From contig JACPNZ010000018.1 in NCBI GenBank assembly GCA_016185245.1, positions 62,001 to 126,000 on the forward strand: 64,000 nt of DNA. Reading direction: 5' to 3'. Numbering within the stretch: the first letter of the stretch is position 1; each line of letters starts with the position of its first letter. Of the stretch, positions 45,921 through 59,376 are shown piece by piece. The notes under the pieces are model-generated. The model was given only the letters and a program-made list of their open reading frames with translations. It was not told the origin of the DNA and ran no database searches. Source of the DNA: Hyphomicrobiales bacterium (GTDB lineage: Bacteria; Pseudomonadota; Alphaproteobacteria; Rhizobiales; Aestuariivirgaceae). The position numbers and the translations under genes were made by a program.

Positions 45921-46517
45921 CTATGCCTGATACTCATGTGACGAACACAGTTGCCCGGCTTCTTCGGAGCTGATCGGCTCATCGAACAGCATGCAGAGGT
46001 GCGGACCGCGCGCATGCGACTCGCGGCCCCGTTCACGGAAGAAGCGACAGGAGACGCAGATGCCAAAGTGCGGCAACCCGGCACGCGCCACCTCTGCCTC
46101 CAACATCTCAGCAAGGTTCCGGCCCAGCCGCCTGCGGGCCTTGTTGCCAAGCTCATCGGCTGACATAACAAGACGCCTCCACGGATCGAGCTCCAGTACG
46201 GCCTGCCCTTGCGGTGTCAGCATGAGAGCGACGGACCGCCGTTCATCCGGGCGTCGCGACTTAACGATCAGGCCCTTTTTTTCCAGCGTCTTAACCGTTT
46301 GTGAAACGGTACCCTTGGTGGCCCCGAGATATTTCGTCAGAACGCTCGGTACGTTGGAAAAACGATTGGCACGGGCGACAAAACGCAATGCCTCCCATTG
46401 CGCCGGGTTGAGTCCCGCCGAATGCTCGTTGGCGCGCATCAGGCGGAGCAATCTTTGCAGCCGAGAGGCGATAACCTCCCCGCTCACTTGTCCTTTGTCG
46501 TCGTCGGCTTCGCGCAT
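45921..46517 (-). CDS. MarR family regulator with C-terminal Cys/His cluster
   Basis: A 198-residue protein. Residues 15-145 form a MarR winged helix (LNPAQWEALRFVARA; GATKGTVSQTVKTLEKKGLI; wing RRPDERRSVALMLTPQG). After it the chain carries a cysteine pattern: CVSC, then HLC 17 residues on, then CSSH near the end. This is consistent with a bound Zn or Fe-S centre and hence metal or redox sensing; no ligand is known. It is the last of a minus-strand run with the dehydrogenase-like, GNAT and deacetylase-like genes, 12 bases after the first of these, so it probably regulates that run. Confidence 0.85.
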   Translation of the reverse strand: MREADDDKGQVSGEVIASRLQRLLRLMRANEHSAGLNPAQWEALRFVARANRFSNVPSVLTKYLGATKGTVSQTVKTLEKKGLIVKSRRPDERRSVALMLTPQGQAVLELDPWRRLVMSADELGNKARRRLGRNLAEMLEAEVARAGLPHFGICVSCRFFRERGRESHARGPHLCMLFDEPISSEEAGQLCSSHEYQA

Positions 46518-46529
46518 GTGCTTGTATCG

Positions 46530-47423
46530 TCACTTGCTGATGCCATTAATCTTGAGAAGCACGTCGATGAGGCGTGGCACGAAGCGCTCGCCGTAGCCTT
46601 GATTCTCGGCCATGACAAAGAGTTGATGCACAGTCTCGGCGAGAAAAGACGCAACCGGCATGGTCTCGGTCATGTTGGTATAGTAACGGAGATCCTTGCG
46701 CGCGTTGCGAATGGCGAATTTTGCGTGGCTATCGTCGTCGGAAAGCGGAACGTTGATCAGACGGCCAAACATCACCGATGCCGCCCCGCCCGACATGACA
46801 ATATCGCGGAAGGCCTGCATGTCGACGCCAGCCCTGGTTGCCACCGCAATGGCTTCCGCCGCCAGGGCGGCATTGCCAAGTGACAGAAAGTTATTGAGAA
46901 GCTTCAGCCGATGACCGGCGCCAACGTCGCCGGCGTAGACGATTGTATCGGCAAAGCAATCGAGCACTGGCCGAATGCGAGCCAGCACGTCCTTGGGACC
47001 GCCGGTCATGAGGCCGAGCGTTCCGGCCTCTGCCTCCTTTGGCGTGCGCGTCATCGGGGTGTCGATAAAGTGACCTCCCTTGGCTGCGACGTCGACCGCT
47101 ATCTTCTCTGTTGAATCTGGCTCCGCCGTTGAGCAGTCGGCAATGATGAAACCCTCGCCCACTGCGCCAAGAAGCCCGTATTCGCCATAGATCGCCTGCT
47201 CTACTTCCGGAGTACCGGTGACGCAGAGGATCACCGCATCGCAGGATTTAGCCAACGCATGCGGACTGCCGACCTCCTTGGCCCCCTTGGCGATGAGGTC
47301 GTCGACCGGTGCCCGGTTGCGATGACCGACGACGGAAAGTTCGAATCCCTTTTTCAGGATATTCTTGCCGATGCCATGACCCATGAGGCCGACACCGATC
47401 AATCCGACATGCTTGATAATCAT
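46530..47423 (-). CDS. NAD(P)-dependent oxidoreductase, 3-hydroxyisobutyrate dehydrogenase family
   Basis: A 297-residue beta-hydroxyacid dehydrogenase. The start at 47423 (MIIKHVGLIGVGLMGHGIGK) places the dinucleotide motif GLIGVGLMGHGI at the N-terminus, with AAGGAA upstream. Substrate-side motifs are FIDTPMTRTPKEAEAGTLGLMTGG near residue 125 and the catalytic Lys in GAGHRLKLLNNFLSLGN near 172. Relatives reduce semialdehydes or oxidise 3-hydroxy acids; the substrate here is unknown. Genomic company suggests handling an aldehyde or hydroxy acid arising from the PLP enzyme at 49001-50347. Confidence 0.88.
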   Translation of the reverse strand: MIIKHVGLIGVGLMGHGIGKNILKKGFELSVVGHRNRAPVDDLIAKGAKEVGSPHALAKSCDAVILCVTGTPEVEQAIYGEYGLLGAVGEGFIIADCSTAEPDSTEKIAVDVAAKGGHFIDTPMTRTPKEAEAGTLGLMTGGPKDVLARIRPVLDCFADTIVYAGDVGAGHRLKLLNNFLSLGNAALAAEAIAVATRAGVDMQAFRDIVMSGGAASVMFGRLINVPLSDDDSHAKFAIRNARKDLRYYTNMTETMPVASFLAETVHQLFVMAENQGYGERFVPRLIDVLLKINGISK

Positions 47424-47434
47424 GTTGATTCCTT

Positions 47435-47899
47435 TCAGTCGATAAACGCGGCAAGGTCTTCCCTCTCGAGAAGGTACAGTCTGTCTTCTTCCTTGCAAAC
47501 AAATCCCAGGCGCCGATAAAACCGGGCTGCCGCCTCGTTTGAAACATCGACCTCGAGCTTGATGAACTCAGCACCACGGCTGGCGACGCGCTTGGCAGCC
47601 TGTCGCAAGAGGTGCTGGCCGACGTTGTGTCCGCGGGCGGTGCCATCCACATAGAGATCCACAACATAGGCGCCCCTGGTGCCCCGCCAGGTTGAAAACG
47701 TCATCAGCGTCAAGCAGGCGCCGATCAGTCGTCCGGCTTGATCCGCAACGGTTATGTCGATGAGATCGCAATTTTCAACGAGCGCAGCGCCGCTCACAAA
47801 GGGCGTAGTATTGGCGCCGATGTCCGCAGCTAGCTTTCGCACCATGGCGGCTACCGCGTCCGCCTCGTCAAGCCGCATCTTGCGATATTCGATGATCAT
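47435..47899 (-). CDS. GNAT family N-acetyltransferase
   Basis: A 154-residue single-domain acetyltransferase. The acetyl-CoA site is DLYVDGTARGHNVGQHLLRQA near residue 88, a variant of R/Q-x-x-G-x-G/A in which the first position is RGHNVG. The last part SNEAAARFYRRLGFVCKEED is the usual GNAT C-terminal helix-strand. Its start overlaps the stop of the deacetylase-like gene by 4 bases, so an acetyltransferase and a predicted deacetylase are translationally coupled. The acceptor is unknown; an amine such as AEP or a polyamine is a guess from context. Confidence 0.87.
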   Translation of the reverse strand: MIIEYRKMRLDEADAVAAMVRKLAADIGANTTPFVSGAALVENCDLIDITVADQAGRLIGACLTLMTFSTWRGTRGAYVVDLYVDGTARGHNVGQHLLRQAAKRVASRGAEFIKLEVDVSNEAAARFYRRLGFVCKEEDRLYLLEREDLAAFID

Positions 47900-48927
47900 G
47901 CGTGAAGCCCTTGCAGCAGGCTTGCAAGATTGGCACCGAGATGCGGCGAAGCATAACCGCCCTCCTGGATAACCAGAATAGGTTTGGCGACTTCTGCGAT
48001 CATTTTGCCAATTTCGGCAAACTCCGCGGTTTCGATGGCAAAGCCCTTGAACGGATCGTCCACCGCGATGTCGAGACCGGCAGCGAGAACGAGAACGTCT
48101 GGAGCAAAATCAGCCAATCGCTCCAAAGCCTTAGATAGCGCTTTGCGATAAGGCATGATTGTCGTGCCGCGTTCCAGTGGCAGGTTGAGGTTGAAACCCT
48201 CGCCAGCGCCGCTGCCACGCTCTTCCTCATAACCCCAGAAAAAGGGATAAAAACGCCTGGGGTGGGCGTGAATGGAGACGGTGAGCACATCGGCCCGATC
48301 ATAGAATATCGCCTCAGTGCCATTGCCGTGATGCACGTCGATGTCGAGAATAGCCGCCCTCTTTCCCGCCCTGGTGAGAAGCTCGGCGGCGATGGCGGCA
48401 TTGTTGAGATAGCAAAACCCGGCTGCGATGTCGGCGGCGGCGTGATGCCCGGGCGGGCGGCACAGAGCATAGACGAGACGCTCACCGCCCAGAATGAGGG
48501 CGGCGGCATGAGCCGCCGTTCCAGCACTCGCCCGCGCAGAGGCCCAGGTGTCGGCGGTTATCGGGCAGGACCCGTCACCCAAATGAAAACCGCATTGACC
48601 GACGACGCTGTCGGGATAACCCGCCGGCGGCAACCCCGGACGCCCCAGTGCAAAGACATTGGCAGATGGAGTTTCGCTGGCGTCAGGGATTCGTTTCCAG
48701 CGCTCCCACAGGGTATCGAGGAAGGCAATGTAGCGGCGATCATGGACGAACGCGAGCGTCTCGCCCAAGATATCCGGAGGAGCGACCACTGGGCCTCCGA
48801 CACGGCGAACGCCATCGAGCAACATGTCGATGCGCTCGGGCCGTTCCGGGATCGGCTGCAACCTCCCGGAGACTACGAATTCGCTCGGCGCGTGGCGGCG
48901 CTGCGCTTCGTCGAATACGGTGATCAT
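47896..48927 (-). CDS. Histone deacetylase-fold amidohydrolase (acetylpolyamine amidohydrolase-like)
   Basis: A 343-residue zinc hydrolase of the HDAC/acetoin utilisation/APAH superfamily. The active-site His pair is in CRPPGHHAAADIAAGFCYLNNAA near residue 155, and the metal ligands are in AAILDIDVHHGNGTEAIFYD near 190 and LDIAVDDPFKGF near 278. The EGGY oxyanion Tyr motif is in LVIQEGGYASPHLG near 322. FFWGYEEERG fits the bacterial APAH-type group. It should remove acetyl from a small N-acetylated amine. It heads the minus run to GNAT, dehydrogenase and MarR and is divergent from the class III PLP gene by 73 bases. Confidence 0.88.
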   Translation of the reverse strand: MITVFDEAQRRHAPSEFVVSGRLQPIPERPERIDMLLDGVRRVGGPVVAPPDILGETLAFVHDRRYIAFLDTLWERWKRIPDASETPSANVFALGRPGLPPAGYPDSVVGQCGFHLGDGSCPITADTWASARASAGTAAHAAALILGGERLVYALCRPPGHHAAADIAAGFCYLNNAAIAAELLTRAGKRAAILDIDVHHGNGTEAIFYDRADVLTVSIHAHPRRFYPFFWGYEEERGSGAGEGFNLNLPLERGTTIMPYRKALSKALERLADFAPDVLVLAAGLDIAVDDPFKGFAIETAEFAEIGKMIAEVAKPILVIQEGGYASPHLGANLASLLQGLHA

Positions 48928-49000
48928 CGGTTTGCCGGCCCCCTAGAACTTCTGCTACTAGCTTGACACGGGTTCCATTCAAATCAAGGCGAATTCACGC

Positions 49001-50347
49001 ATGTCAGCTGCTGCCCCCTTGCCACCCAGTATTCATTCCATCGGCAGTCTTCCGAAGGTCGCCTGGGCCAAGGGAAGCTATGTCTATGACGCCGCCGGCA
49101 AACAGTACATCGACGGATCAGGCGGCCCGGCCGTCTATTGCATCGGTCACGGCAATCCGGAAGTGAATCAAGCAATCAAGGCGCAGCTTGACCGCGTCGC
49201 CCATGGCTACCGTTACAACTTCACGTCAGACGCCCTGGAGGAACTCACCGAGATTATCCGTGCGAGATGTGGCGGAACGTTGCAGCATATGGTCTATGTC
49301 ACCGGTGGCTCGGAAGCGGTCGAGTCCTGCCTCAAACTAGCATTGCAATATCATGCCGCCTGCGGCGAGATGAGCCGCCGCCGGTTCATTGCTCGCGAAC
49401 GTTCCTGGCATGGCAACACCCTCGGCGCCCTGTCGGTGTCCGGGTTTCTCGAACGGAAGAAGGCTTTCGAAGGCTCCTTGCTCGATGTCTCGCGCCTGTC
49501 TCCGGCCAATGTCTATCGCCCTGTCGCCGGCGCTACGGCTGAAACCGCCGGCGAGGCCTGCGCCCAGGAACTCGAGAGCGAAATCTTGAGACTTGGCCCG
49601 GAGAAGTTCGCCGCCTTCATTTTCGAGCCTGTTGTTGGTGCGGCCGGCGGCTGCGTGCCGGCCCCACCCGGGTATGCCAAACGCGTGCGTGAGGTCTGTG
49701 ACAAGTACGGCGTGCTGATGATCTCCGATGAAGTCATGTCGGGGGCGGGCCGTTGCGGTAGCTGGCGAGCGCTCGAAGCGGATGGAGTTGAGCCCGACAT
49801 CATGGCAGTCGCAAAGGGCCTCGCCGCCGGTTATCTGCCTTTGGGAGCCGCCATCTATTCAAACAAGGTTGCGGACGCCATCCACGGCGCCCATGGTGCT
49901 CCGATGACCGGGCATACTTTCACCGGCCATACCGCCTGCTGCGCTGCCGGCGCGGCTGTCCAGAAGATTGTCGCGCGGGAAAAACTCGTCGAGCGTGTGC
50001 GAGACAATGAAGTCGTTCTCAAGGCCATGATCACCGAAGCAATGCAGGGGGTGGAGGCCGTCGGCGACATCCGCGGCCGGGGTTACTTCATCGCCACCGA
50101 ACTGGTGGCCAACCGCAACACCAGGGTGCCGTTCCCGGCGGAACACAAGCTCTACATGCGCATCCGTCAGCAAGCCTTCGACAACGGCCTGATCTGCTAT
50201 CCGGTCGGCGGCAATGTCGACGGAGTGAATGGCGATGCCGTCATCCTGGCGCCGCCCTATAACGCGACCTCCGCCGAGTTGGATGAGATCGTGTCAAAGA
50301 TGGCCAAGTCCGTCAGACAGGTACTTGCGGCGACCGGCGTCGGCTGA
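49001..50347 (+). CDS. Class III PLP-dependent aminotransferase-family enzyme (PbfA-type lyase or transaminase)
   Basis: A 448-residue fold-type I PLP enzyme. Landmarks are GSGGPAVYCIGHGNPEV near residue 38, VTGGSEAVESCLKLA near 100, the PLP Asp in GVLMISDEVMSGAGRCG near 245 and the Schiff-base Lys in DIMAVAKGLAAGYLPLGA near 273. The phosphate-contact region is MTGHTFTGHTACCAAG. In phosphonate clusters a class III family member, PbfA, eliminates ammonia from (R)-1-hydroxy-2-aminoethylphosphonate to give phosphonoacetaldehyde, the PhnW product; this neighbourhood fits that. It could instead be an omega-amine or polyamine transaminase paired with the divergent deacetylase. Stop is 3 bases from the convergent phn operon end. 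Confidence 0.85.
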   Translation: MSAAAPLPPSIHSIGSLPKVAWAKGSYVYDAAGKQYIDGSGGPAVYCIGHGNPEVNQAIKAQLDRVAHGYRYNFTSDALEELTEIIRARCGGTLQHMVYVTGGSEAVESCLKLALQYHAACGEMSRRRFIARERSWHGNTLGALSVSGFLERKKAFEGSLLDVSRLSPANVYRPVAGATAETAGEACAQELESEILRLGPEKFAAFIFEPVVGAAGGCVPAPPGYAKRVREVCDKYGVLMISDEVMSGAGRCGSWRALEADGVEPDIMAVAKGLAAGYLPLGAAIYSNKVADAIHGAHGAPMTGHTFTGHTACCAAGAAVQKIVAREKLVERVRDNEVVLKAMITEAMQGVEAVGDIRGRGYFIATELVANRNTRVPFPAEHKLYMRIRQQAFDNGLICYPVGGNVDGVNGDAVILAPPYNATSAELDEIVSKMAKSVRQVLAATGVG

Positions 50348-50350
50348 GAC

Positions 50351-51151
50351 TTAGTACCAGTTGTCTCGCTCGGCGTCCTTGGCCATGCGGGCCGGCCCGC
50401 GGTTGAGGAACGCATCGGCATGGACGATGGTTCGGTCATGTTCGATCAGAACGACGGCGTACATCGGTGGCTCGTCGCTATAGACTGTCTCGACCGAGCC
50501 ACCGACCAGCGGCAGTTGGTGGTTTAGACTCGGGAGGGCTGAAAACGGAATTCCCCGCCACTGCCCACTGATCGGTCGATGGGCGTGCCCAAAGAAAATG
50601 TGGTGGATATCGTGGTCATTGAGGAGATCGGCAAAACCCTCAGGGTCATCAAGCTTGATCAAGTCCTGCAAGGGATGACCAATGTCGAAGGGTGGATGAT
50701 GCATGAAGAGGTAGACGGGAGCGTCGCCGGCCCTGTCCAGCTCCGCCTTCAGCCAGGCGCGGCGGGGAGCATCGTAAAGTCCCGCCGACGACGGCGGTCC
50801 TTTCAAGGTATCGAGAAAAAGAAAGTATGAGCCATTCCGCGCGATCGCTTGTTGAACGTGGCCGGCCGGGTCCGCTCCACCGAAGACCTGTAGATAGTTC
50901 GCCCGGCTGTCGTGATTGCCGAGCATGAGGTATGTTTCAATCGGCAACTCTTCCAATCGCCGTTTCAGGACCCGATAGGAGGCAATCTCGCCTTGCTCGG
51001 CCAAATCGCCGGTGATGGCGCAAAAGCTTGCATCGGAATGGTGGGCTGCAATATCGGTGAGGCAGGCATCGAGCCGGGCGAAGGGGTCGAGCCCCCAGAG
51101 TAATTCACCGGGCTTGCCGAGATGCAAATCGGTCAGGTGGATGAATTTCAT
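50351..51151 (-). CDS. GpdQ-like class III metallophosphoesterase
   Basis: A 266-residue binuclear metal phosphodiesterase of the cpdA/GpdQ class. The full metal set is visible: D-x-H in LTDLHLG near residue 8, GDLAEQG near 49, GNHDSR near 79, MHHPPFD near 150 and FGHAHRP near 190. Family members cleave cyclic nucleotides, glycerophosphodiesters and, notably, phosphonate monoesters. It is the last gene of the phnW-phnA-phnY-carrier operon and overlaps the carrier gene by 4 bases. I infer it releases free AEP or phosphonoacetate from an esterified phosphonate; a cAMP phosphodiesterase role is the alternative. Confidence 0.87.
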   Translation of the reverse strand: MKFIHLTDLHLGKPGELLWGLDPFARLDACLTDIAAHHSDASFCAITGDLAEQGEIASYRVLKRRLEELPIETYLMLGNHDSRANYLQVFGGADPAGHVQQAIARNGSYFLFLDTLKGPPSSAGLYDAPRRAWLKAELDRAGDAPVYLFMHHPPFDIGHPLQDLIKLDDPEGFADLLNDHDIHHIFFGHAHRPISGQWRGIPFSALPSLNHQLPLVGGSVETVYSDEPPMYAVVLIEHDRTIVHADAFLNRGPARMAKDAERDNWY

Positions 51152-52845
51152 TCGGGCTTCACATCGCCACTCCTGAGACGCGATCCTCGCAACAGGCCAG
51201 CGGCATCGACGATCGGGTATCCGGCGGACACGATATGCGAGTTGATGCGGTGGAGATCGCGGATCATGTCGACATAGAGCGCGCTGCGGCGCAATGCGCC
51301 GCCCTTGCCGCGCGCCCCCACCCGGAAATGCTCGTCGAGCACGCTGTTCTCGAGTGCACGAAAGGCATCTTTCTGGGCGATCAGCCGCTTGGCACCCTCA
51401 ATATCGCCGGACGACAAAACCCCTGTCGCGATCCGCAGATTTTCATGGATGATGAGGCATAGGTCGTCCAGGGACGCTTGTTCGGCAACGCTGAAAGCTA
51501 TGCTTTCCTTGGCCTTGGCCTTGATGCGGTCCGACAGGTTAAGATGGATCACGTCACCTGCATGCTCAAGGTTGCTGATATAGAGAGTGATCTCCAAGGC
51601 TCGGCGGGCATCTGGCGCTGAAAGCTCGACTTGCGCAAGGTCTGACAGATAGGACTGCACGGCCGTCTGAAACGCGTTGAGGCGCTCGTCCAGCGCCTTC
51701 AGTAGCTTCAACGTCTCGAGACTCCCCGTACGGAGGGCCATCAGTGCCGTATCGAACATGCGATCGAGCACTTCGCTCATGCGCACGGTCTCAAGCATGG
51801 CATTGGCAAGTGCCACCGACGGCGTGGACAGCGCCACCGCATCGAGGTAGCGGGGCGCCGCGAGCCGATCGTCATCCTGCTTCTCATCCGGAACGAGACG
51901 GTACATGATTCTTTCGACCCCGCCAGTCAGAGGCAGAAAAACGAGTCCTGCCACGATGTTGAACAGGGCATGGAAGGTGACGGCGGTCTCGACTGCCCGC
52001 ATCGGTATCAGTACCACATAGGGTGTTATCCGGCCGATGAAGGCCAGTCCGGCTATCGCCATGAAGGCGCGGCAGAAGAGATTGGAAAGTGGCAGTCTCC
52101 GCGCCGCAGCCGGCAGTGCCAGTGTGGATGTTACCGCCGGAAGGCCGCCACCAAAATTGATGCCGAGAACGAAACTCAGCGCACCCGCAACCTCAAGGCT
52201 GCCATTCGCCAGGAACGAGGCGATCAGCAGGATCGCGGCAAGCGTCGAATGAAAAGCCCAGGCCAGGAAAGCGCCGACAATGAATGCCAGCAGCGGCTCG
52301 CGGCCGACCGCTGCCAGGACGTCGTGAAACAGGCTTGCACCGCTCAGCGGCACGGTAGCGGTCTTGATGAGCTGCAGCGATAGCAGCATCAGGCCTAGGC
52401 CGATAAGGATGCGCCCAACATTGTGCGGCCGGAATTCCTCCGACATGCTGAAGGTAACGTAGCCTGCGAACAACAGGATAGGTGAGGCCCACAGCGCGAA
52501 GTTGCTACCGGATGCGAAGTTGCTACCGGATGCAAAGACCGAGGACACGATGGCCGAGCCCACATCGGCGCCAAGCAGGATGGCAAGGCCGAGTGCCGTG
52601 CCGATGGCACCCGAGGCGGCAATGCCGGCGACGATCAGTGTCATGGCCGTGCCGCTACCCAGGATGGCAGTGGCAATTCCGCCGGCGAGGAAGGCCGAAA
52701 GCCTGCTTCCCAGGCGATGCTCGATGAAGGCCTTCAACCGGTCGCCCCAGGCGCGCATGACACCGGTGCGGACCATGCGCACGCCCCAGAGCAGCAGCGC
52801 TACCCCGCCCAAGAGATTGACGATAACGAGGGTTCCCGGGTTCAC
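51148..52845 (-). CDS. Na/Pi cotransporter family protein with PhoU-like tail
   Basis: A 565-residue inner-membrane protein of the PNaS family. The N-terminal half has the inverted repeat of hydrophobic spans with family QSS-type motifs altered to GSGTAMTLIVAG near residue 63 and FHSTLAAILLIASFLANGSLE near 213. The C-terminal 220 residues form a PhoU-like helical domain (LISNLEHAGDVIHLNLSDRI-type text near 480). It may move the phosphate released by PhnA. An 18-base tandem duplication at 52496-52531 repeats FASGSN. It follows phnY by 7 bases in the same operon. Confidence 0.9.
   Translation of the reverse strand: MNPGTLVIVNLLGGVALLLWGVRMVRTGVMRAWGDRLKAFIEHRLGSRLSAFLAGGIATAILGSGTAMTLIVAGIAASGAIGTALGLAILLGADVGSAIVSSVFASGSNFASGSNFALWASPILLFAGYVTFSMSEEFRPHNVGRILIGLGLMLLSLQLIKTATVPLSGASLFHDVLAAVGREPLLAFIVGAFLAWAFHSTLAAILLIASFLANGSLEVAGALSFVLGINFGGGLPAVTSTLALPAAARRLPLSNLFCRAFMAIAGLAFIGRITPYVVLIPMRAVETAVTFHALFNIVAGLVFLPLTGGVERIMYRLVPDEKQDDDRLAAPRYLDAVALSTPSVALANAMLETVRMSEVLDRMFDTALMALRTGSLETLKLLKALDERLNAFQTAVQSYLSDLAQVELSAPDARRALEITLYISNLEHAGDVIHLNLSDRIKAKAKESIAFSVAEQASLDDLCLIIHENLRIATGVLSSGDIEGAKRLIAQKDAFRALENSVLDEHFRVGARGKGGALRRSALYVDMIRDLHRINSHIVSAGYPIVDAAGLLRGSRLRSGDVKPE
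52496..52531. repeat. In-frame 18-base tandem duplication in the Na/Pi carrier gene
   Basis: Two identical, adjacent 18-base units (GCGAAGTTGCTACCGGAT) lie at 52496-52513 and 52514-52531, followed by a partial third start (GCAAAG). On the coding strand they duplicate the residues ASGSNF, giving SVFASGSNFASGSNFALW between two membrane spans. Confidence 0.95.
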
Positions 52846-52852
52846 CCTTTCC

Positions 52853-54313
52853 TCAGGCCGGCCACGGCAGGGACCACGTCTTCACATTGGTGAAAAACTT
52901 CATGGCCTCCATGACGCCCTCCTTGATGCCGTTTCCGCTGTCCTTGATGCCGCCAAAGGGCGACATCTCGATGCGATATCCCGGCACTTCCCAGATATTC
53001 ACGGTTCCCACATTAAGGCCTTCGATGAAGCGGGTGATGCGATCCAGCCGGTTGGTGCAGACGCCGGACGAGAGACCGAAGGGGGTCGAATTGGAAATAT
53101 GGATCACCTCGGCGTCGTCGTTGGGAACCCGCACGATGGGAATAACGGGCCCAAAGGTTTCTTCGAAGACCAATTCCGATTGGTGCGGCACGAAGTCGAT
53201 GGTGATGGGCGGCAGCACGGCGCCCTGGCGGCCCGGATCATAAAGCACTTTGGCCCCCTGCTCGGCAGCTAGGTAGACGCGGCGTTCGAATACCTTGGCG
53301 GCCTCCTCGTGCACCACCGTTCCGAGGTCCGTGCTCGGGTCCATGGGATCACCGAACTTGATCTTCTTGGCTTTGGCCAACGCCAGCTCGACGAATTTGT
53401 CGGCGACGCGTTCCTGTACCAGAATGCGCTTCACCGCCGTGCAGCGCTGGCCGGAATTCTTGGTGGCACCGGCGACCGCGAGTTCGGCGGCCTTGTCGAG
53501 ATCGGCCTCGGAGAGATCGTCGAGGACGATTAGCGGGTCATTGCCACCAAGCTCAAGAGCAGCACGCTTGTAGGCGGCCTTGGCCGCTATGATCTTGCCG
53601 ACCCGAACGCCGCCGGTGAAGGTGATGACGCTGATGGCTTCATTGGTTACCATCTCGCCGCCGATGTCGTCGGGCCAACCGGTCACAACCTGAAACATCT
53701 CCGGCGGCAATCCTGCTTCATAAAGAATGTCCGCGAGAGCAATGGCGGTAAGCGGCGTCAGCTCCGTGGGCTTGCAAACCACGCAATTGTTGGTGGCGAT
53801 GGCCGGCGCTACCTTATGCGATACCATGTTGAGCGGATGGTTGAAGGGAGTGATGGCCGATACCACGCCCACCGGCTCGCGCTTGGTAAATATCTTGCGG
53901 GACTTCCCCTGTGGGGTGAGGTCGCAGGAGAATACTTGGCCATCGTCGAGAATGGTGAGTTGGCCCGCCAGCGAAAACACGTCGTAGGCGCGGCCGCATT
54001 CATAGACCGAATCTTTCTTGGACAGGCCAAGTTCGAGCGTGATGAGATCCGAAAGTTGGCCGGTTCGCGCGCGGATGAGTTCCGCCGTGCGAAACAGAAT
54101 CTGTTGGCGCTCATAACGCGTGAGCTTGGGCTTGTAGGCGGCGGCGATGGCAAAGGCCTTTGCCGCATGCTCGGCCCGGCCCGCCGGCACTGTGCCGATG
54201 ATCTCGTTGGTATAGGGATAGTGGACAGGTATTTCGCCGTCCGCCCCGACCCGCTTGCCACCGATGCGCATAGCCTCCCTGATGATCGGCCGCTTCACTG
54301 CTGGCGCGTTCAT
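52853..54313 (-). CDS. phnY: Phosphonoacetaldehyde dehydrogenase
   Basis: A 486-residue NAD-dependent aldehyde dehydrogenase that converts phosphonoacetaldehyde to phosphonoacetate. The start at 54313 is one base after the phnA stop. The catalytic Cys is in [15 protein letters not shown] near residue 290, the general base Glu in [15 protein letters not shown] near 254 and cofactor residues in [18 protein letters not shown] and FTGGVRVGK. The length and the GQRCTA variant match the S. meliloti PhnY. Its call depends heavily on phnA and phnW upstream; standing alone it would be a generic ALDH. Confidence 0.93.
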
Positions 54314-54314
54314 C

Positions 54315-55553
54315 TCAGTTCTCCACGATATGGTTGCAACCGACGGCAAAGGCATCGAAATTCCGGAGTTTGCCGGGAAGCCCCTCGAGCTTGCGATTGA
54401 CGATGACCGGAACCTCCTGTTCGGTTAGCCCGCCGTGCGAGCGTAGTGGCTCTTTGAGTCCCGAGAGATCGTGTTTGTCGCGGCTGGTGCCGATGGCCTT
54501 AGATGCGGTTGGTCCGCCCGATACCACAATGATGTCGCCCATACGATCTTCCGGCAATTCGAAGCGGGCACAGCCGTCCCTGCGGTTCAACACCAGGTCA
54601 ATCCCGGGCTGCATGGCGATCTCCGCCATCACGCTGGCTACGGTGGGACCGTAAATATAAACTGTCGCAAAGGAGCCCAGCGCTCCGTGATGAACTACAT
54701 AGGGGTCGGTGATCGGCAGGATTACCTTGGTCTTTCCCGTTCCGAATTTGCGGTCGAGCAAGTCCTGCAAGTATATGACATCAGGCTCGCCATTGGCCAA
54801 ATGTTTGTCCTTCATGCCGTGGTCAGCGACGATGACTACGATGGCTCCACCACGATCCAGCTCGCCCAGATACCTGTCCATCATGGCGTAGAAGCTGCTG
54901 GCACCAGCCGAACCCGGAGCAAATTTGTGCTGCACATAGTCGGTCGTTGAGAGATACATGAGATCGGGGCGCATCGAGCCCAGAAGCTTAACACCAGCTG
55001 CGAAGACGAATTCGGAGAGTTCGGCTGAATAGACCTCCGGCACGGTTAGTCCGACCATGGCGCAGACATGCTCAATACCATTGTCCTTGAGCGTCGCTTT
55101 GTCGGCTTTTTCGGATGAGAAGCAGACTGCCGAACCGTCGAAAGCGAGTCCCTTGCCGAGAAGAAGCCGCAGCTTGTCCTTGGCCGTCACCACGGCGACT
55201 TTAGCGCCTGCCTTCTGGAAAGCCTCGAAGATGGTCGGTGACCGCAGCCATTTCGGGTCGTTCATCATTGTCTCGGTGCCGGTGGTGGGATCGATGAGGT
55301 AGTTACCGCAGATGCCGTGCACCGACGGTGGGCGGCCGGTCACGATCGACAGGTTGTTGGGATTGGTGAAACTCGGGATAACCGAACAACCCCGAAGGTT
55401 CTCGCCCCTTTCGATCATCGCCTTCAGGTTCGGCATGAGACCTTCGGCCATGGCGATTTCCATGTAGGCGGGCTCGCTGCCGTCGCAGCAGACCACCACG
55501 AGGGGCACCTTGGGCCACTTGTATTCGCGGCCATTGACACTGACGGTCTTCAT
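54315..55553 (-). CDS. phnA: Phosphonoacetate hydrolase
   Basis: A 412-residue zinc enzyme of the alkaline phosphatase superfamily that splits the C-P bond of phosphonoacetate into acetate and phosphate. The nucleophile Thr is in [16 protein letters not shown] near residue 64, with the first metal Asp in [12 protein letters not shown] near 24. Other ligands are in [16 protein letters not shown] near 205, [14 protein letters not shown] near 240 and [12 protein letters not shown] near 375. The whole set fits PhnA as in S. meliloti and Pseudomonas. It follows phnW by 3 bases and precedes phnY by 1. Confidence 0.94.
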
Positions 55554-55556
55554 GCC

Positions 55557-56732
55557 TCAGGCCTCGAGCGGGACTAGATCGGTGACCTTCATCTCGCGCA
55601 GCACGTCGCCAATAGCCTCGAGCACCGCGTTCATCACTTTATCGTCGATCTGGCCAATAGTGCCAATCCGGAAACTTGGTCGTTTGGTCAACTTGCCCGG
55701 ATAGATGGCAAAACCGCGGGCGCGCAGCGACTCGTAGAACTGCTCGAAATCGAAATTGGGATCGCGCGGCGTGAGGAAAGTCTGAATGATGGGGCCGGCC
55801 TCGTCGTCGCCAAGCAGCGTCGTGAATCCCATGTCCTGCATGCCCTTGATCAGGATCTGGGCATTGCGGGCGTAGCGGTTGCCGCGCGCCGCGACTCCGC
55901 CCTGCTGTTCGTGCTCTTTCAGCGCCTGATGGAAGGCGACCAGCGCATGGGTGGGAGGCGTAAAGCGAAACTGGCCATTTGCCTCCAAGCCCCTCCACTG
56001 ATCGAAGAGATCAAGCACCAGCGAATGGCACTTGCCCTTGGAGGCCTCAAGCATGTCGCGCCTTACCAAGACGTAGGAAAAGCCCGGCACACCTTCGATG
56101 CACTTGTTGGACGACGACACCATGACATCGATGCCGGAGGCTTCCATGTCGAGCGGCAGCGCGCCGAACGAAGACATGGCATCGACCATATAGACTCGCC
56201 CCCGTTCCTTCACCGCCTTGGCGACATCATCGATCCGATTGACGATCCCTGAGGTGGTCTCGCAATGAATCATCCACACGTGGCTGATACCGGGATCGGC
56301 GTCGAGCGCGCTGGCAACCTCTTCAGTGCTAGGGGCGGCGCTGTCGCCCTTGTCGATCTTGAGGCAGGGACGGCCGATGCGTTCGAGGATATTGGCGGCG
56401 CGATCACCATAGGCACCGTTGGCAACGACCAGGGTCTTCGTGCCGCTCGACGGGCAGAAAGAGCCAAGCGCTGCCTCGATGGCGAATGTTCCCGAACCCT
56501 GCATGATCACGCATTCATAGGCCGGGCCGCAGTTGGCGAGCTTCACCAGAGCCTTGCGGATGTCGGCGACGATCTGGCGAAACTCGATGTCGCGGGAGCC
56601 CCAGTCGGCCAGCATCGTGAGTTTTACCGACCGTGACGTGGTCAATGGGCCAGGCGTCAGCAAATAGGGCATATCTTCCTGGCCGGCCGGGCCTTTGAAG
56701 GTGGGAATGATGCGCGGTGCGGTGGTTGTCAT
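55557..56732 (-). CDS. phnW: 2-aminoethylphosphonate-pyruvate transaminase
   Basis: A 391-residue fold-type I PLP transaminase that converts 2-aminoethylphosphonate and pyruvate to phosphonoacetaldehyde and alanine. The N-terminal LLTPGPLTTSRSVKLTMLADWGSRD is the PhnW signature, near residue 24. The PLP Asp lies in VYMVDAMSSFGALPLD near 180 and the Schiff-base Lys in VSSSNKCIEGVPGFS near 205. The C-terminal ends FRIGTIGQIDDKVMNAVLEAIG. First gene of phnW-phnA-phnY-carrier-phosphoesterase, divergent from a LysR gene by 89 bases. Upstream extra N-terminal residues (about 17) are longer than usual. Confidence 0.95.
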   Translation of the reverse strand: MTTTAPRIIPTFKGPAGQEDMPYLLTPGPLTTSRSVKLTMLADWGSRDIEFRQIVADIRKALVKLANCGPAYECVIMQGSGTFAIEAALGSFCPSSGTKTLVVANGAYGDRAANILERIGRPCLKIDKGDSAAPSTEEVASALDADPGISHVWMIHCETTSGIVNRIDDVAKAVKERGRVYMVDAMSSFGALPLDMEASGIDVMVSSSNKCIEGVPGFSYVLVRRDMLEASKGKCHSLVLDLFDQWRGLEANGQFRFTPPTHALVAFHQALKEHEQQGGVAARGNRYARNAQILIKGMQDMGFTTLLGDDEAGPIIQTFLTPRDPNFDFEQFYESLRARGFAIYPGKLTKRPSFRIGTIGQIDDKVMNAVLEAIGDVLREMKVTDLVPLEA

Positions 56733-56821: not shown

Positions 56822-57679
56822 ATGCGTCATGCGCAGCTTTTGGCCTTCCATGCAGTTGCCACTCAGGGCGGCTTTTCACGCGCTGCGGAGAAGCTGTCGC
56901 TTACCCAGCCTGCCGTATCCGATCATGTGCGCAAGCTGGAGGAAACCTACGGCGTTCAGCTCTTCAACCGTGCCGCCCGCGGTGCCGAACTGACCGCGCT
57001 GGGACGTGGGCTATTTGCCATCACGGAGCGGCTTCTTGAGGCCGAGGGGCAGGCGCGGGAGCTATTGTCGCGCGCCAAGACGCTGGACGAAGGTCAGCTC
57101 ACCATAGGAGCGGACGCCGCGGTCCACGTCCTTCTGCACATTGTCCGCTTCCACCAAAACCACCCGCGCATCACCCTCCGGCTGGTTACCGGCAACTCGG
57201 CCGAGCTTCTTGCCCGGCTGGAATCTCTTTCCATCGACCTCGCGGTCACGGCAGAAAGGCCCAGTTCAGAAGCGGTTCTGGCGCGCCGACTGAAACAGGA
57301 TCGCCTCGTCGCGGTTATTCGCGAGGAGTCGACTTTCCAGAAGGAGAGATCGCTGTCTTTGACGCGCCTGGCGGAGTTACCTCTAATCCTGCGCGAAGAG
57401 GGCTCGGCGACCCGCAGGCTTCTTCTCGAAGAATTACGACGGCGAGGACTTCGGCCCAGTATTGCCATCGAGATCGAAAGTCGTGAAGCGGCCCGCGAGG
57501 CGGTGGCCCAAGGTTTGGGCGTGGCAGTCATGTCGGAGGGCGAACTCGTGCCGGACTCCCGTCTCAGGACCATCCGAATATCCGATTGGCAGGCTTCCAT
57601 GGAAGAGTGGCTCTTGTGCCTAAAATCGCGAGCCGACTTGCACATAATCCGCTCCTTCTTCGACGTCCTGCCGGGCTAG
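56822..57679 (+). CDS. LysR family regulator of the phosphonate operon
   Basis: A 285-residue LysR-type regulator. The N-terminal helix-turn-helix is LLAFHAVATQGGFSRAAEKLSLTQPAVSDHVRKLEET (positions 5-41, given in pieces: FSRAAEKLSLTQPAVSDHV). The effector domain follows, with GQLTIGADAAVHVLLHIV near residue 93 and LPLILREEGSATRRLL near 182. Divergent from phnW, it most likely activates phnW-phnA-phnY in response to AEP or phosphonoacetaldehyde, as LysR proteins do in related clusters. Its stop overlaps that of the convergent epmA by 4 bases (CTAG). Confidence 0.9.
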   Translation: MRHAQLLAFHAVATQGGFSRAAEKLSLTQPAVSDHVRKLEETYGVQLFNRAARGAELTALGRGLFAITERLLEAEGQARELLSRAKTLDEGQLTIGADAAVHVLLHIVRFHQNHPRITLRLVTGNSAELLARLESLSIDLAVTAERPSSEAVLARRLKQDRLVAVIREESTFQKERSLSLTRLAELPLILREEGSATRRLLLEELRRRGLRPSIAIEIESREAAREAVAQGLGVAVMSEGELVPDSRLRTIRISDWQASMEEWLLCLKSRADLHIIRSFFDVLPG

Positions 57680-58713
57680 GGAACGGGTGTCCAGATGACC
57701 TGATCGATCCGGGTGGCTCCGGTCGCCAGCATCACCAGACGGTCGAAGCCAAGCGCCACGCCGGAAGCTGGCGGCATGATAGTCAAAGCCTTGAGCAACT
57801 CCTCATCTATGGGATAGCGCTCGCCATAGACTCGTTCTTTTACTTCCATTTCCGTCACAAAGCGCCGCCGCTGTTCGACCGGATCGATCAACTCGCCAAA
57901 ACCGTTGGCCAGTTCCACTCCACAAGCGTAGAGCTCGAAGCGTTCTGAAACCCGCCGGTCGTGGGCGCAGCTGCGCGCCAATGCCGCCTCGACAGCTGGA
58001 TACTCGTAAAGAACCGTCAGTGCCTCTATGCCGAGATTGGGCTCAATTTCTTCGACCAAAATGCGGCTGAAAATGTCGGACCAGCTGTCGTCGTCCGCGA
58101 CCCTAATTCGGGATTGGGCTGCCAGACCGTCACGGTCGGCACCGCCCGCCTGATCTAGCGTTGCCAGGAGATCGACACCCGCATAACGGTGGAAGGCTTT
58201 GGCAACCGTCAAGCGCTCGGGCTCTGCAAAGGGGTTTATTTCCCGCCCGCGCCAGGAAAAGCTACGCGCGCCGGCAGTTTCGGCAGCAATCTTGATGAGT
58301 GCCAGCGCATCAGCGATAATGATTCCATAGGCTTCATTAGCACGATACCACTCCAGCATGGTGAACTCGGGCAAGTGCGTCAGAGTGCGTTCCCGGTTCC
58401 GATAGACTCGCGCCAGATCGAAGATTCTGGTCTCTCCGGCCGCCAGTAGCTTCTTGCAGGCAAATTCCGGCGAAGTGTGCAGATAGCGCCGTTCACGGCT
58501 TCCGTCCGGCTGGATCAAGTCGGTGGCAAAGCCATGGAGATGAGCCTCGTTGCCGGGAGAAATCTGCAGCGTCGAACAGGAAACCTCCGTGAATCCGCAG
58601 TCGGAAAACCACGAGCGAACAGCCGTCGCGATACGATTGCGGGCCAGCAGAAAGGGTCTCCGGTCGTGATGCCGGTTGGGTGAAAACCACGGCGAAGGGG
58701 GGGGTGGATGCAA
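57676..58713 (-). CDS. epmA: Elongation factor P--beta-lysine ligase EpmA (GenX/PoxA)
   Basis: A 345-residue paralogue of the class II lysyl-tRNA synthetase catalytic core without the anticodon-binding domain. Motif 2 is [17 protein letters not shown] near residue 77 with [26 protein letters not shown] following, and motif 3 is [16 protein letters not shown] near 320. EpmA attaches beta-lysine to a Lys of EF-P, which is encoded divergently 90 bases away. The partner EpmB (lysine 2,3-aminomutase) is not in the window. The N-terminus [17 protein letters not shown] fits rhizobial EpmA. Confidence 0.93.
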
Positions 58714-58803
58714 AGCTTCTCAAAGGGGTTGGATTTGTCGGGTGTCACTGCTAATACCCTGCCCGGCTTTCCCCCGCAAATCATAGAAAGAACGAGTGTA
58801 AAC

Positions 58804-59376
58804 GTGGTCAAGATCATCGCAAGCGGTGTCCGCAAGGGCAATGTCATCGAGCATGAGGACGGCAAGCTCTATGTCATCCTCAAGGCCGAAAGCATGCATC
58901 CGGGCAAGGGTACGCCGACGACAACCATCGACATGCGCCGCATCTCCGACGGCGTGAAGACGACAGTGCGATACAAGACCACCGACACCATGGAGCGGGC
59001 GTTTGTAGAGACGCTCACTCACAACTATCTCTATCAAGACGGCGAGCAGTACGTTTTCATGAACCCGGAAAACTTCGAGCAGATCCACTTGCCGGCCGAC
59101 ATGTTGGGCGACCAGGCTGCCTTCCTGCAAGAAGGCATGGAGTGCCAGATCGCGCTGTTCAACGGTACGCCGATTTCCATTGAATTACCGCAGCGCGTGG
59201 TCCTCGAGATCGTTGAGACGGAGCCCGCCATCAAAAACCAGACGGCGTCCTCCTCCTTCAAGCCGGCATTGCTGTCCAACGGCGTGCGCACCATGGTGCC
59301 GCCGCATGTCACCTCGGGCACGCGAATTGTCGTCGCCACCGAAGACGGTTCCTACGTGGAACGCGCCAAGGACTAA
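58804..59376 (+). CDS. efp: Elongation factor P
   Basis: A 190-residue translation factor that relieves ribosome stalling at proline runs. I chose the GTG at 58804 ([20 protein letters not shown]), where the family start lies; ATGs upstream at 58708 fall in the epmA 5' end and give an abnormal extension. The modified Lys is in [17 protein letters not shown] near residue 34, so the protein is a competent EpmA substrate. [12 protein letters not shown]-like text ([13 protein letters not shown]) near 60 and [17 protein letters not shown] near 120 are family marks. Convergent with the methyltransferase by a 4-base stop overlap. Confidence 0.95.

What the first reader, a model, noticed from the sequence alone, without database searches (positions are those of the whole stretch)
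46530..50347. Deacetylase-GNAT-dehydrogenase set divergent from a class III PLP enzyme, next to the phn operon
An HDAC-fold amidohydrolase and a GNAT are translationally coupled (4-base overlap), followed by a 3-hydroxyisobutyrate-dehydrogenase-like enzyme, all divergent by 73 bases from a class III PLP enzyme. Its stop lies 3 bases from the phn operon. One reading is a feeder route: deacetylation of N-acetyl-aminophosphonates and PbfA-type deamination of hydroxy-AEP into the phosphonoacetaldehyde pool. The competing reading is acetyl-polyamine or omega-amine catabolism. I know of no described system with this exact set.
Basis: inference. Interest (0 to 1): 0.7.

Follow-up and report, generated by a model that had tools for sequence, protein, structure and literature searches.

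The report
Predicted acetyl-shielded diamino-acid breakdown genes
Four neighbouring genes beside a phosphonate operon look like a small pathway that breaks down an acetyl-tagged, lysine-like amino acid rather than a phosphonate, and related gene sets in soil bacteria give a testable guess at long-missing genes.

Summary
The phosphonate reading fails its tests: PbfA score 209.8 against cut-off 525, outside the PbfA clade, PbfA signatures absent. Of 33 genus genomes with the PLP gene, phn flanks it in 12, not in 17 (as far as fetched), unresolved in 3, not fetched in 1; six have no phnA match. The core that recurs is PLP, GNAT and HDAC. In two genomes of another family a PLP gene of the window's own clade is followed by a beta-keto-acid cleavage (BKACE) gene and a GNAT; a sister PLP clade forms PLP-BKACE-GNAT-HDAC operons (12 of 18 loci complete). 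This matches, step for step, a recalled Pseudomonas beta-lysine pathway: acetylate, transaminate, cleave, deacetylate. I propose acetyl-shielded catabolism of a beta-lysine-like diamino acid; every reaction and the substrate are inferred. Against it: no lysine 2,3-aminomutase match in this genome, no BKACE beside the set in this genus, HDAC missing beside PLP in 7 congeners. Acetyl-diamine (polyamine) catabolism is the main rival.

The parts
46530..47423 (-). HIBADH-like beta-hydroxyacid dehydrogenase (297 aa from ATG 47423); a near-constant accessory in this genus, not beside the trio in the two other genera seen
   Evidence: NAD_binding_2 and NAD_binding_11; below every NCBIfam cut-off listed; beside the set in the genus loci except G178 and G179 (absent) and G175 (contig end); trio without it in G277 and G260
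47435..47899 (-). GNAT N-acetyltransferase
   Evidence: Acetyltransf_1; best PDB hits thialysine acetyltransferase 12jc, E 1.3e-10, and unnamed 2fe7, E 1.4e-10; of 12 plasmid relatives at E <= 1e-12, 10 lie beside an HDAC gene
47896..48927 (-). HDAC-fold (acetylpolyamine-amidohydrolase-like) zinc deacetylase, 4-base overlap with the GNAT gene
   Evidence: Hist_deacetyl E 2.8e-74; zinc ligands, His-His and Tyr kept
48928..49000 (.). 73-base divergent intergenic region between HDAC and PLP genes
   Evidence: no sigma-70 consensus match in it
49001..50347 (+). Class III PLP enzyme of the PRK07483 kind, predicted beta-transaminase
   Evidence: NF005685 492.2 bits against cut-off 485; catalytic Lys and Asp kept; clade A, two members of which precede a BKACE gene
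50351..56732 (-). Neighbour, judged not part of the system: convergent operon PhnW - PhnA - PhnY - Na/Pi symporter - metallophosphoesterase

Best explanation
The PLP, GNAT and HDAC genes form an acetyl-shielding catabolic module for a diamino acid, most likely beta-lysine or its N6-acetyl form. The GNAT acetylates the distal amine (so that the keto product cannot cyclise), the class III PLP enzyme transaminates the inner amine to a beta-keto acid, the chain is split (by a BKACE encoded elsewhere in this genome, or by another route), and the HDAC-fold enzyme removes the acetyl group from the remaining acetamido acid or its CoA ester, giving a 4-aminobutyrate-like product. The HIBADH-like enzyme is a genus-level add-on, perhaps a reductase of a semialdehyde or keto intermediate. 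The phn operon is an incidental neighbour. Shown here: gene order, families, kept catalytic residues, recurrence of the trio, and recurring PLP-BKACE-GNAT(-HDAC) operons in relatives, two of them with a PLP of the window's own clade. Inferred: every reaction and the substrate.
For: (1) Same divergent trio in 24 of 32 genus loci and in G277 and G260. (2) PLP genes of the window's own clade (67-69% identity) in G050 and G121 are followed by a BKACE (507 bits, NF053538 cut-off 430) and a GNAT relative (36-45%) on the same strand. (3) PLP clade B (36-38% identity), with GNAT (30-38%) and HDAC (47-52%) relatives: of 18 loci, 12 have PLP, BKACE, GNAT and HDAC in that order, 1 has the four in another order, 3 lack a found GNAT, 1 has a broken BKACE and 1 has PLP and HDAC only. 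(4) Six of 32 other PRK07483-like loci have a distant BKACE (24-28%) next to PLP (only about 1.5 kb of flank in 15 of the 32). A BKACE implies a beta-keto acid, hence a beta-amino substrate. (5) Two more GNAT relatives lie near CoA-transferase, thiolase, ArgE/DapE deacylase and a different class III gene; one has a lysine-2,3-aminomutase-like gene about 5.7 kb off. (6) Sneathiella L046: GNAT-HDAC fusion in one run with an aminomutase closest to lysine 2,3-aminomutase. (7) GNAT best PDB match is named for a lysine analogue. (8) All 11 order genomes with a PLP match at E <= 1e-170 have an HDAC at E <= 1e-90, against 35 of the 150; five families, kinship not corrected, loose HDAC limit.
Against: No lysine 2,3-aminomutase-family match (E <= 1e-20) in this genome and in only 6 of 37 in the genus, not tracking PLP. 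In the genus no BKACE place lies near the PLP place; the own NF053538-type BKACE is on another contig beside an oxidoreductase gene. NF053538-type BKACEs also stand in loci that look like aromatic catabolism (names from memory), so the BKACE type does not fix the substrate. Eleven of 15 clade-A loci outside the genus show neither BKACE, GNAT nor HDAC in the stretch held. HDAC is absent beside PLP in 7 genus genomes, GNAT too in G150. One HDAC inside clade B (Qingshengfaniella L185) is not in such an operon. The window HDAC keeps a Glu at the column of MrApaH Glu17 (3 of 10 clade A rows, 0 of 18 B; its polyamine role recalled). The pathway itself was not found in the held papers and rests on memory.
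Confidence: 0.48

Rival explanations
1. Acetyl-diamine (acetylputrescine or acetylcadaverine) catabolism: GNAT acetylates the diamine, the PLP enzyme makes an acetamido aldehyde, the HDAC-fold enzyme deacetylates as Pseudomonas aeruginosa PA0321 and PA1409 do.
For: Best solved relatives of the HDAC are acetylpolyamine amidohydrolases; class III enzymes generally act on amines not next to a carboxylate (PMC8154272, passage); P. aeruginosa PA0321 and PA1409 mutants grow poorly on acetylputrescine and acetylcadaverine (PMC4784309, abstract and passages); the window HDAC keeps the Glu17 column.
Against: PIS motif and Glu106 absent in 28 of 28 clade A and B HDACs, though one B row has Asp at 106 (compared with PMC11532494 passages); PLP not grouped with own-genome AptA, GabT or PRK07480-type paralogues; no aldehyde dehydrogenase in the set; BKACE beside clade-A and clade-B PLP genes.
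Confidence: 0.22
2. Phosphonate feeder route: N-acetyl-AEP deacetylation and hydroxy-AEP deamination into phosphonoacetaldehyde.
For: Adjacent convergent phn genes in 12 genus genomes; weak PhnO-model hit of the GNAT; the HIBADH-like enzyme shares an Arg and Asn-Asn with sulfolactaldehyde reductase (role of these residues recalled).
Against: PbfA 209.8 against 525 and PhnO 33.1 against 142; outside the PbfA clade; PbfA signature residues absent; 17 genus genomes with PLP not beside phn as far as fetched, 6 without a phnA match; PhnW already makes phosphonoacetaldehyde.
Confidence: 0.06
3. Catabolism of a sulfonated or other strongly anionic amine (for example acetylated taurine or homotaurine): deacetylate, transaminate, reduce the aldehyde with the HIBADH-like enzyme.
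For: The Arg of the RTP motif and the Asn-Asn are kept in 30 of 30 rows (29 genus loci and G277) and shared with 6sm7 sulfolactaldehyde reductase, not with the four other solved sequences shown.
Against: HIBADH is not beside the trio in G277 or G260, and in G277 lies by what looks like a sugar ABC transporter (names from memory); other HIBADHs with the same Arg occur in unrelated places.
Confidence: 0.07
4. Reversible protein acetylation switch: the GNAT and HDAC acetylate and deacetylate the PLP or HIBADH enzyme, as AcuA and AcuC do for acetyl-CoA synthetase (recalled).
For: GNAT and HDAC translationally coupled; a cluster 4 deacylase also acts on some lysine peptides (PMC11532494 passages).
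Against: HDAC closest to small-molecule amidohydrolases; HDAC absent while GNAT, PLP and HIBADH stay in 6 genomes; in sister operons the pair sits with a catabolic set.
Confidence: 0.06

Closest known systems
Pseudomonas beta-lysine pathway (beta-lysine N6-acetyltransferase, N6-acetyl-beta-lysine transaminase EC 2.6.1.65, 3-keto-6-acetamidohexanoate cleavage, 4-acetamidobutyryl-CoA deacetylase EC 3.5.1.51; Barker laboratory, recalled, nothing read)
   Same: Acetyltransferase, transaminase and deacetylase families present; sister operons add the cleavage enzyme, and three of them a thioesterase
   Different: No cleavage enzyme in this locus, an HIBADH-like gene instead; no aminomutase match in this genome; activities untested
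PLP-BKACE-GNAT-HDAC operons of Shinella, Phyllobacterium, Pararhizobium, Ensifer and others (this work)
   Same: Three of four protein families shared; GNAT-HDAC 4-base overlap in five loci
   Different: GNAT before HDAC, one strand, BKACE present, PLP of clade B
PLP-BKACE-GNAT set of G050 and G121 (this work)
   Same: PLP of the same clade A, GNAT relative
   Different: BKACE in the set; HDAC elsewhere in the genome and of the B kind
Bacterial acetylpolyamine amidohydrolases (PA1409, PA0321, Mycoplana ApaH)
   Same: Fold, catalytic residues, RPPGHH and EGGY motifs
   Different: No PIS motif, no Glu106; gene context
[quoted passage not shown]
   Same: Class III PLP family, near phnWAY
   Different: Separate clade, far below the model cut-off, signature residues differ, convergent and not conserved with phn

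Membership tests
PbfA (NF049939) | Score above curated cut-off 525 | tested here: not met
   209.8 bits
PbfA (NF049939) | Falls in the PbfA clade | tested here: not met
   8 PbfA rows form their own clade; window PLP lies in another group with support 98/95; the PbfA branch is long
PbfA (NF049939) | DEIPTG and HYTHE signature seen in 8 of 8 PbfA rows | tested here: not met
   Window has DEVMSG and HTFTG
PbfA (NF049939) | Lyase activity on (R)-hydroxy-AEP | not testable with these tools
   needs assay
PRK07483-type class III enzyme (NF005685) | Score above cut-off 485 | tested here: met
   492.2 bits
Bacterial polyamine deacetylase (cluster 4, PMC11532494) | RPPGHH and EGGY motifs, catalytic residues | tested here: met
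Bacterial polyamine deacetylase (cluster 4, PMC11532494) | PIS motif | tested here: not met
   PFK in the window; PIS in 0 of 28 clade A and B rows
Bacterial polyamine deacetylase (cluster 4, PMC11532494) | Glu106 (His in PsApaH) | tested here: not met
   Val109 at that column; Glu in 0 of 28 rows, Asp in 1
Bacterial polyamine deacetylase (cluster 4, PMC11532494) | Extended L2 loop and head-to-head dimer | not tested
   no model was made
Aminoalkylphosphonate N-acetyltransferase PhnO (NF007530) | Score above cut-off 142 | tested here: not met
   33.1 bits
3-hydroxyisobutyrate dehydrogenase (TIGR01692) | Score above cut-off 291.6 | tested here: not met
   140.1 bits
Beta-lysine degradation pathway (recalled) | Genes of acetyltransferase, transaminase and deacetylase families together | tested here: met
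   families only, substrates unknown
Beta-lysine degradation pathway (recalled) | Beta-keto-acid cleavage gene in the cluster | tested here: not met
   absent in the window; NF053538-type gene on another contig; present with same-clade PLP in G050 and G121
Beta-lysine degradation pathway (recalled) | Lysine 2,3-aminomutase in the genome | tested here: not met
   no match at E <= 1e-20 in G000, 6 of 37 in the genus; 8 of 14 control genomes ring, E. coli among them
Beta-lysine degradation pathway (recalled) | Enzyme activities on beta-lysine intermediates | not testable with these tools
   needs assay

The most novel reading that the evidence does not exclude
The PLP-GNAT-HDAC trio and the PLP-BKACE-GNAT(-HDAC) operons are the unassigned genes of N6-acetyl-beta-lysine catabolism, with an HDAC-fold enzyme acting as the 4-acetamidobutyrate or 4-acetamidobutyryl-CoA deacetylase: a new metabolic role for the HDAC fold, possibly for recycling the osmolyte N-epsilon-acetyl-beta-lysine.
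Probability: 0.28. Interest if true: 0.7.

Novelty: new variant of a known kind. Interest (0 to 1): 0.5.

Why it matters
If right, it would give candidate genes to two enzyme activities that I recall as described around 1980 without sequences, show a small-molecule role of HDAC-fold enzymes beyond polyamines, and stop the phn neighbourhood from being misread as a phosphonate feeder. The prediction can be tested with four proteins and a short list of substrates.

Tried and rejected
Phosphonate link by neighbourhood: rejected as not conserved. PbfA membership: rejected. Neighbour genes c24-c28 in some genus loci looked like a clue but are housekeeping by sight of the sequence (COX3-like, SURF1-like, threonine synthase-like, peptidase, GGDEF/EAL, names from memory). 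BKACE presence in the genome as a marker within the genus: rejected, 36 of 37 genomes have one, including G104 and G162 without PLP. Lysine 2,3-aminomutase as a partner in the genus: not supported. HIBADH as pathway core: rejected outside the genus. MarR gene 45921-46517 as regulator: no relative at 35% identity or more showed in the fetched loci. EpmA adjacency (cluster c5 within five called genes of PLP in 10 genus loci; named EpmA) as beta-lysine evidence: kept only as a curiosity because EpmB is missing too. Structure prediction was not run: it would not decide the substrate.

Literature: no held paper with the N-acetyl-AEP terms, none with the term pair, none with acetamidobutyryl, EC 3.5.1.51 or EC 2.6.1.65; the five papers hold only 'beta-lysine N6-acetyltransferase'. 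Searches (20 of 4,053 papers listed; 30 of 43 listed) were seen as listings; the four papers hold two BKACE-type terms and no deacetylase term. These searches cover open-licence PubMed Central papers only. Papers seen as found passages only: PMC10590968, PMC11532494, PMC4784309, PMC12366243, PMC8154272, PMC4922564, PMC12871164.

For that reason the best explanation went from 0.42 to 0.48, the novel case from 0.25 to 0.28, and the polyamine rival from 0.27 to 0.22 (small cuts in two others).
Full report
WHAT IS THERE. Every coordinate in the finding is right. On the minus strand lie an HDAC-fold gene (47896-48927), a GNAT gene overlapping it by ATGA (47435-47899) and an HIBADH-like gene. The listed ORF of the last begins at a TTG at 47498; an ATG at 47423 with a good ribosome-binding sequence is the better start, 11 bases after the GNAT stop. 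A class III PLP gene runs the other way from 49001 to 50347, 73 bases from the HDAC start. Three bases further ends a minus-strand operon, in order of reading PhnW, PhnA, PhnY, Na/Pi symporter, metallophosphoesterase (PhnW, PhnA and PhnY over their NCBIfam cut-offs), with a LysR gene opposite. So the PLP gene and the phn operon meet tail to tail. Promoter- and terminator-like matches do not exceed shuffles.

FAMILIES. The PLP protein passes NF005685 (PRK07483, 492.2 bits, cut-off 485), a model without a named substrate, and fails PbfA (209.8, cut-off 525). The HDAC-fold protein's best solved relatives are acetylpolyamine amidohydrolases, E 8e-80 to 3e-74. The GNAT passes no listed model (best RimI 49.9 against 86.4; PhnO 33.1 against 142); its best solved relatives are a thialysine acetyltransferase (E 1.3e-10) and an unnamed acetyltransferase (E 1.4e-10). 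The HIBADH-like protein is below the cut-off of all 11 models listed; its best solved relative is 3pef, which I recall as a succinic semialdehyde reductase.

IS PHN PART OF IT? The genus has 37 genomes held. The PLP orthologue is in 33 (E <= 1e-130), PhnA in 31 (E <= 1e-60), the HDAC orthologue (64% or more) in 26. PLP without PhnA: 6 (G155, G170, G176-G179; G176 is 79% complete, the others 92% or more). PhnA without PLP: G104, G151, G162, G174, of which G174 has HDAC, GNAT and HIBADH on a 4.6-kb contig. I fetched the surroundings of 31 PLP genomes besides the window; G153 was not fetched. In one search, phn genes flank PLP in 12 (G000, G068, G135, G158-G161, G168, G172, G180-G182), always convergent; in 17 they do not within the stretch held (G150, G152, G154, G155, G157, G163-G167, G170, G171, G173, G175, G177-G179; the stretch beyond PLP is only 1.4 kb at G177, 2.8 kb at G163 and 4.3 kb at G175); G152, G157 and G171 have phn on the same contig 12-14 kb away; in 3 the contig ends first (G156, G169, G176). 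In the others PLP often lies near EpmA or by genes that look like COX and threonine-synthase genes. The phn neighbourhood is therefore a feature of part of the genus.

WHAT IS CONSERVED. HDAC with GNAT lies divergent from PLP in 24 of the 32 loci including the window, is on another contig in G166, and is absent in 7 (G150, G161, G163-G165, G167, G170), where one search shows only distant HDACs or none. GNAT is missing only in G150. HIBADH is missing at G178 and G179 and beyond the contig end at G175. The trio in the same divergent order, without HIBADH, is in G277 (another genus of the family) and G260 (another family); G277's HIBADH (66%) is on another contig; G070 and G106 have HDAC-GNAT and PLP apart. 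Of the 150 order genomes, 11 have a PLP match at E <= 1e-170; all 11 have an HDAC at E <= 1e-90, against 35 of the handles G000-G149 (hypergeometric 3e-8; not corrected for kinship, five families, and G079's HDAC lies outside clades A and B).

THE OPERONS WITH A BKACE. Fifteen clade-A PLP loci outside the genus were looked at (G004, G050, G055, G070, G079, G092, G106, G121, G260, G277, L040-L043, L045). In two, G050 and G121 (one genus of another family), PLP is followed on the same strand by a BKACE (507 bits in each, NF053538 cut-off 430) and a GNAT relative; G260 and G277 have HDAC-GNAT; the other 11 show none of these in the stretch held. Searching the HDAC against plasmids gave 87 records at E <= 1e-50; I looked at 12 of them, and 10 have a clade-B PLP gene close by, while Qingshengfaniella and Azospirillum do not. 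With eight chromosomal loci this makes 18 clade-B loci: PLP, BKACE, GNAT and HDAC in that order in 12 (L179-L181, L184, L241-L244, L293, L294, L300, L302); the four in another order in L303; no GNAT found in L183, L297 and L299; a broken BKACE in L182; PLP and HDAC only in L298. Four plasmid loci also carry an amino-acid ABC transporter and three a thioesterase gene (Pfam 4HBT in one). Among 32 other PRK07483-like loci, 6 have a distant BKACE (24-28%) next to PLP (L027, L028, L034, L035, L052, L054). NF053538 is named for 3,5-dioxohexanoate, and BKACEs 60-72% identical to the operon ones are found in the genus in loci that look like aromatic catabolism (names from memory), so the BKACE type tells of a beta-keto acid, not which one.

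GNAT RELATIVES. The window GNAT has 12 plasmid relatives at E <= 1e-12: 10 beside an HDAC gene; 2 (Rhizobium leguminosarum, R. bangladeshense) near CoA-transferase, thiolase, ArgE/DapE deacylase and a different class III gene, the latter with a lysine-2,3-aminomutase-like gene about 5.7 kb off (TIGR03822, 552.7 bits). In Sneathiella litorea (L046) a GNAT-HDAC fusion (cut by the locus end) follows an aminomutase closest to lysine 2,3-aminomutase (482.8, cut-off 525.4) and two genes of which one is D-Ala-D-Ala-ligase-like by Pfam and the other looks alike by sight. No aminomutase was found in the 18 clade-B loci.

TREES. In a tree of 78 class III proteins the window clade A (18 rows, 100/100), clade B (13 rows, 100/100) and other PRK07483-like enzymes form one group (98/95); 8 PbfA proteins form a clade on a long branch, and the seven own-genome paralogues used (of 13; named, AptA, GabT and PRK07480-type among them) lie outside that group, several on long branches. 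In a tree of 42 HDACs A and B are neighbouring clades (fork 89/84, with L292 unresolved); L185 and five HDACs without clade-B PLP beside them fall inside B. In G004, G050, G055, G092 and G121 the HDAC is of this B kind and has no clade-B PLP beside it.

RESIDUES. All 28 clade A and B HDACs keep the zinc ligands, both His and the Tyr; none has the PIS motif or Glu106 that PMC11532494 (passages) ties to bacterial polyamine deacetylases, though one has Asp at 106, and the window keeps a Glu at the Glu17 column (role recalled). The PLP enzyme has DEVMSG and HTFTG where 8 of 8 PbfA rows have DEIPTG and HYTHE. The HIBADH-like enzyme has an Arg in an RTP motif and Asn-Asn further on, kept in 30 of 30 rows (29 genus loci and G277) and shared with sulfolactaldehyde reductase only, among the five solved sequences shown; I recall, without having read it here, that this Arg binds the sulfonate.

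HOW IT MOST LIKELY WORKS. I recall the beta-lysine pathway of a Pseudomonas from the Barker laboratory (about 1979-1981): beta-lysine is N6-acetylated, transaminated to 3-keto-6-acetamidohexanoate, cleaved with acetyl-CoA to acetoacetate and 4-acetamidobutyryl-CoA, and deacetylated to 4-aminobutyrate. The clade-B operon has one gene of the right kind for each step. The window has three of the four, and its own PLP clade stands beside the fourth in G050 and G121. I therefore read the window set as an acetyl-shielded diamino-acid route of the same logic, with beta-lysine or N6-acetyl-beta-lysine the best single guess. With no lysine 2,3-aminomutase match in the genome such a substrate would come from outside; I recall acetyl-beta-lysine as an osmolyte of methanogens and halophiles (one search lists compatible-solute papers that hold the term). 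What weakens this: the sequence distance between types A and B, the missing cleavage gene in this genus, the HDAC losses, and the clade-A PLP genes that stand alone. Acetyl-diamine catabolism remains the strongest rival.

NOVELTY. I found no description of the operon in the listings, which cover open-licence papers only and were partly capped. The protein families are all known; the combination and the proposed substrate are new to me. I file it as a new variant of a known kind.

Noticed in passing
L046:16216-21296 (Sneathiella litorea): Aminomutase closest to lysine 2,3-aminomutase, two ligase-like genes and a GNAT-HDAC fusion protein in one run: looks like a separate beta-amino-acid system.
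   Followed up: partly
L240 (Rhizobium bangladeshense plasmid p3): Lysine-2,3-aminomutase-like gene with an L-amino-acid-ligase-type ATP-grasp gene near GNAT, thiolase, CoA-transferase and a class III PLP gene.
   Followed up: partly
L027, L028, L034, L035, L052, L054: PRK07483-like PLP genes of other clades directly beside a distant BKACE gene (24-28% identity), suggesting that beta-transamination may be general in this PLP family.
   Followed up: partly
57676-58713 and 58708-59376: EpmA (355.2 bits, cut-off 286.9) and EF-P are present, but no lysine 2,3-aminomutase family member (EpmB included) was matched in 31 of 37 genus genomes, this one among them.
   Followed up: partly
G000:C38:207094-208092 (L301): A second, distant HDAC-fold gene (48%) in the same genome, with no PLP or GNAT relative called beside it.
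   Followed up: no
46530-47423: HIBADH-like enzyme has an Arg and Asn-Asn pattern shared with sulfolactaldehyde reductase; its substrate is open.
   Followed up: partly
45921-46517: MarR-type gene next to the set, without a similar neighbour in the other genus loci fetched.
   Followed up: partly
50351-52845: SpdA-like metallophosphoesterase and Na/Pi symporter with PhoU domain close the phn-side operon; they stand between PLP and PhnY in 7 of the 12 phn-flanked genomes and not in G159, G160, G168, G172 and G181.
   Followed up: no
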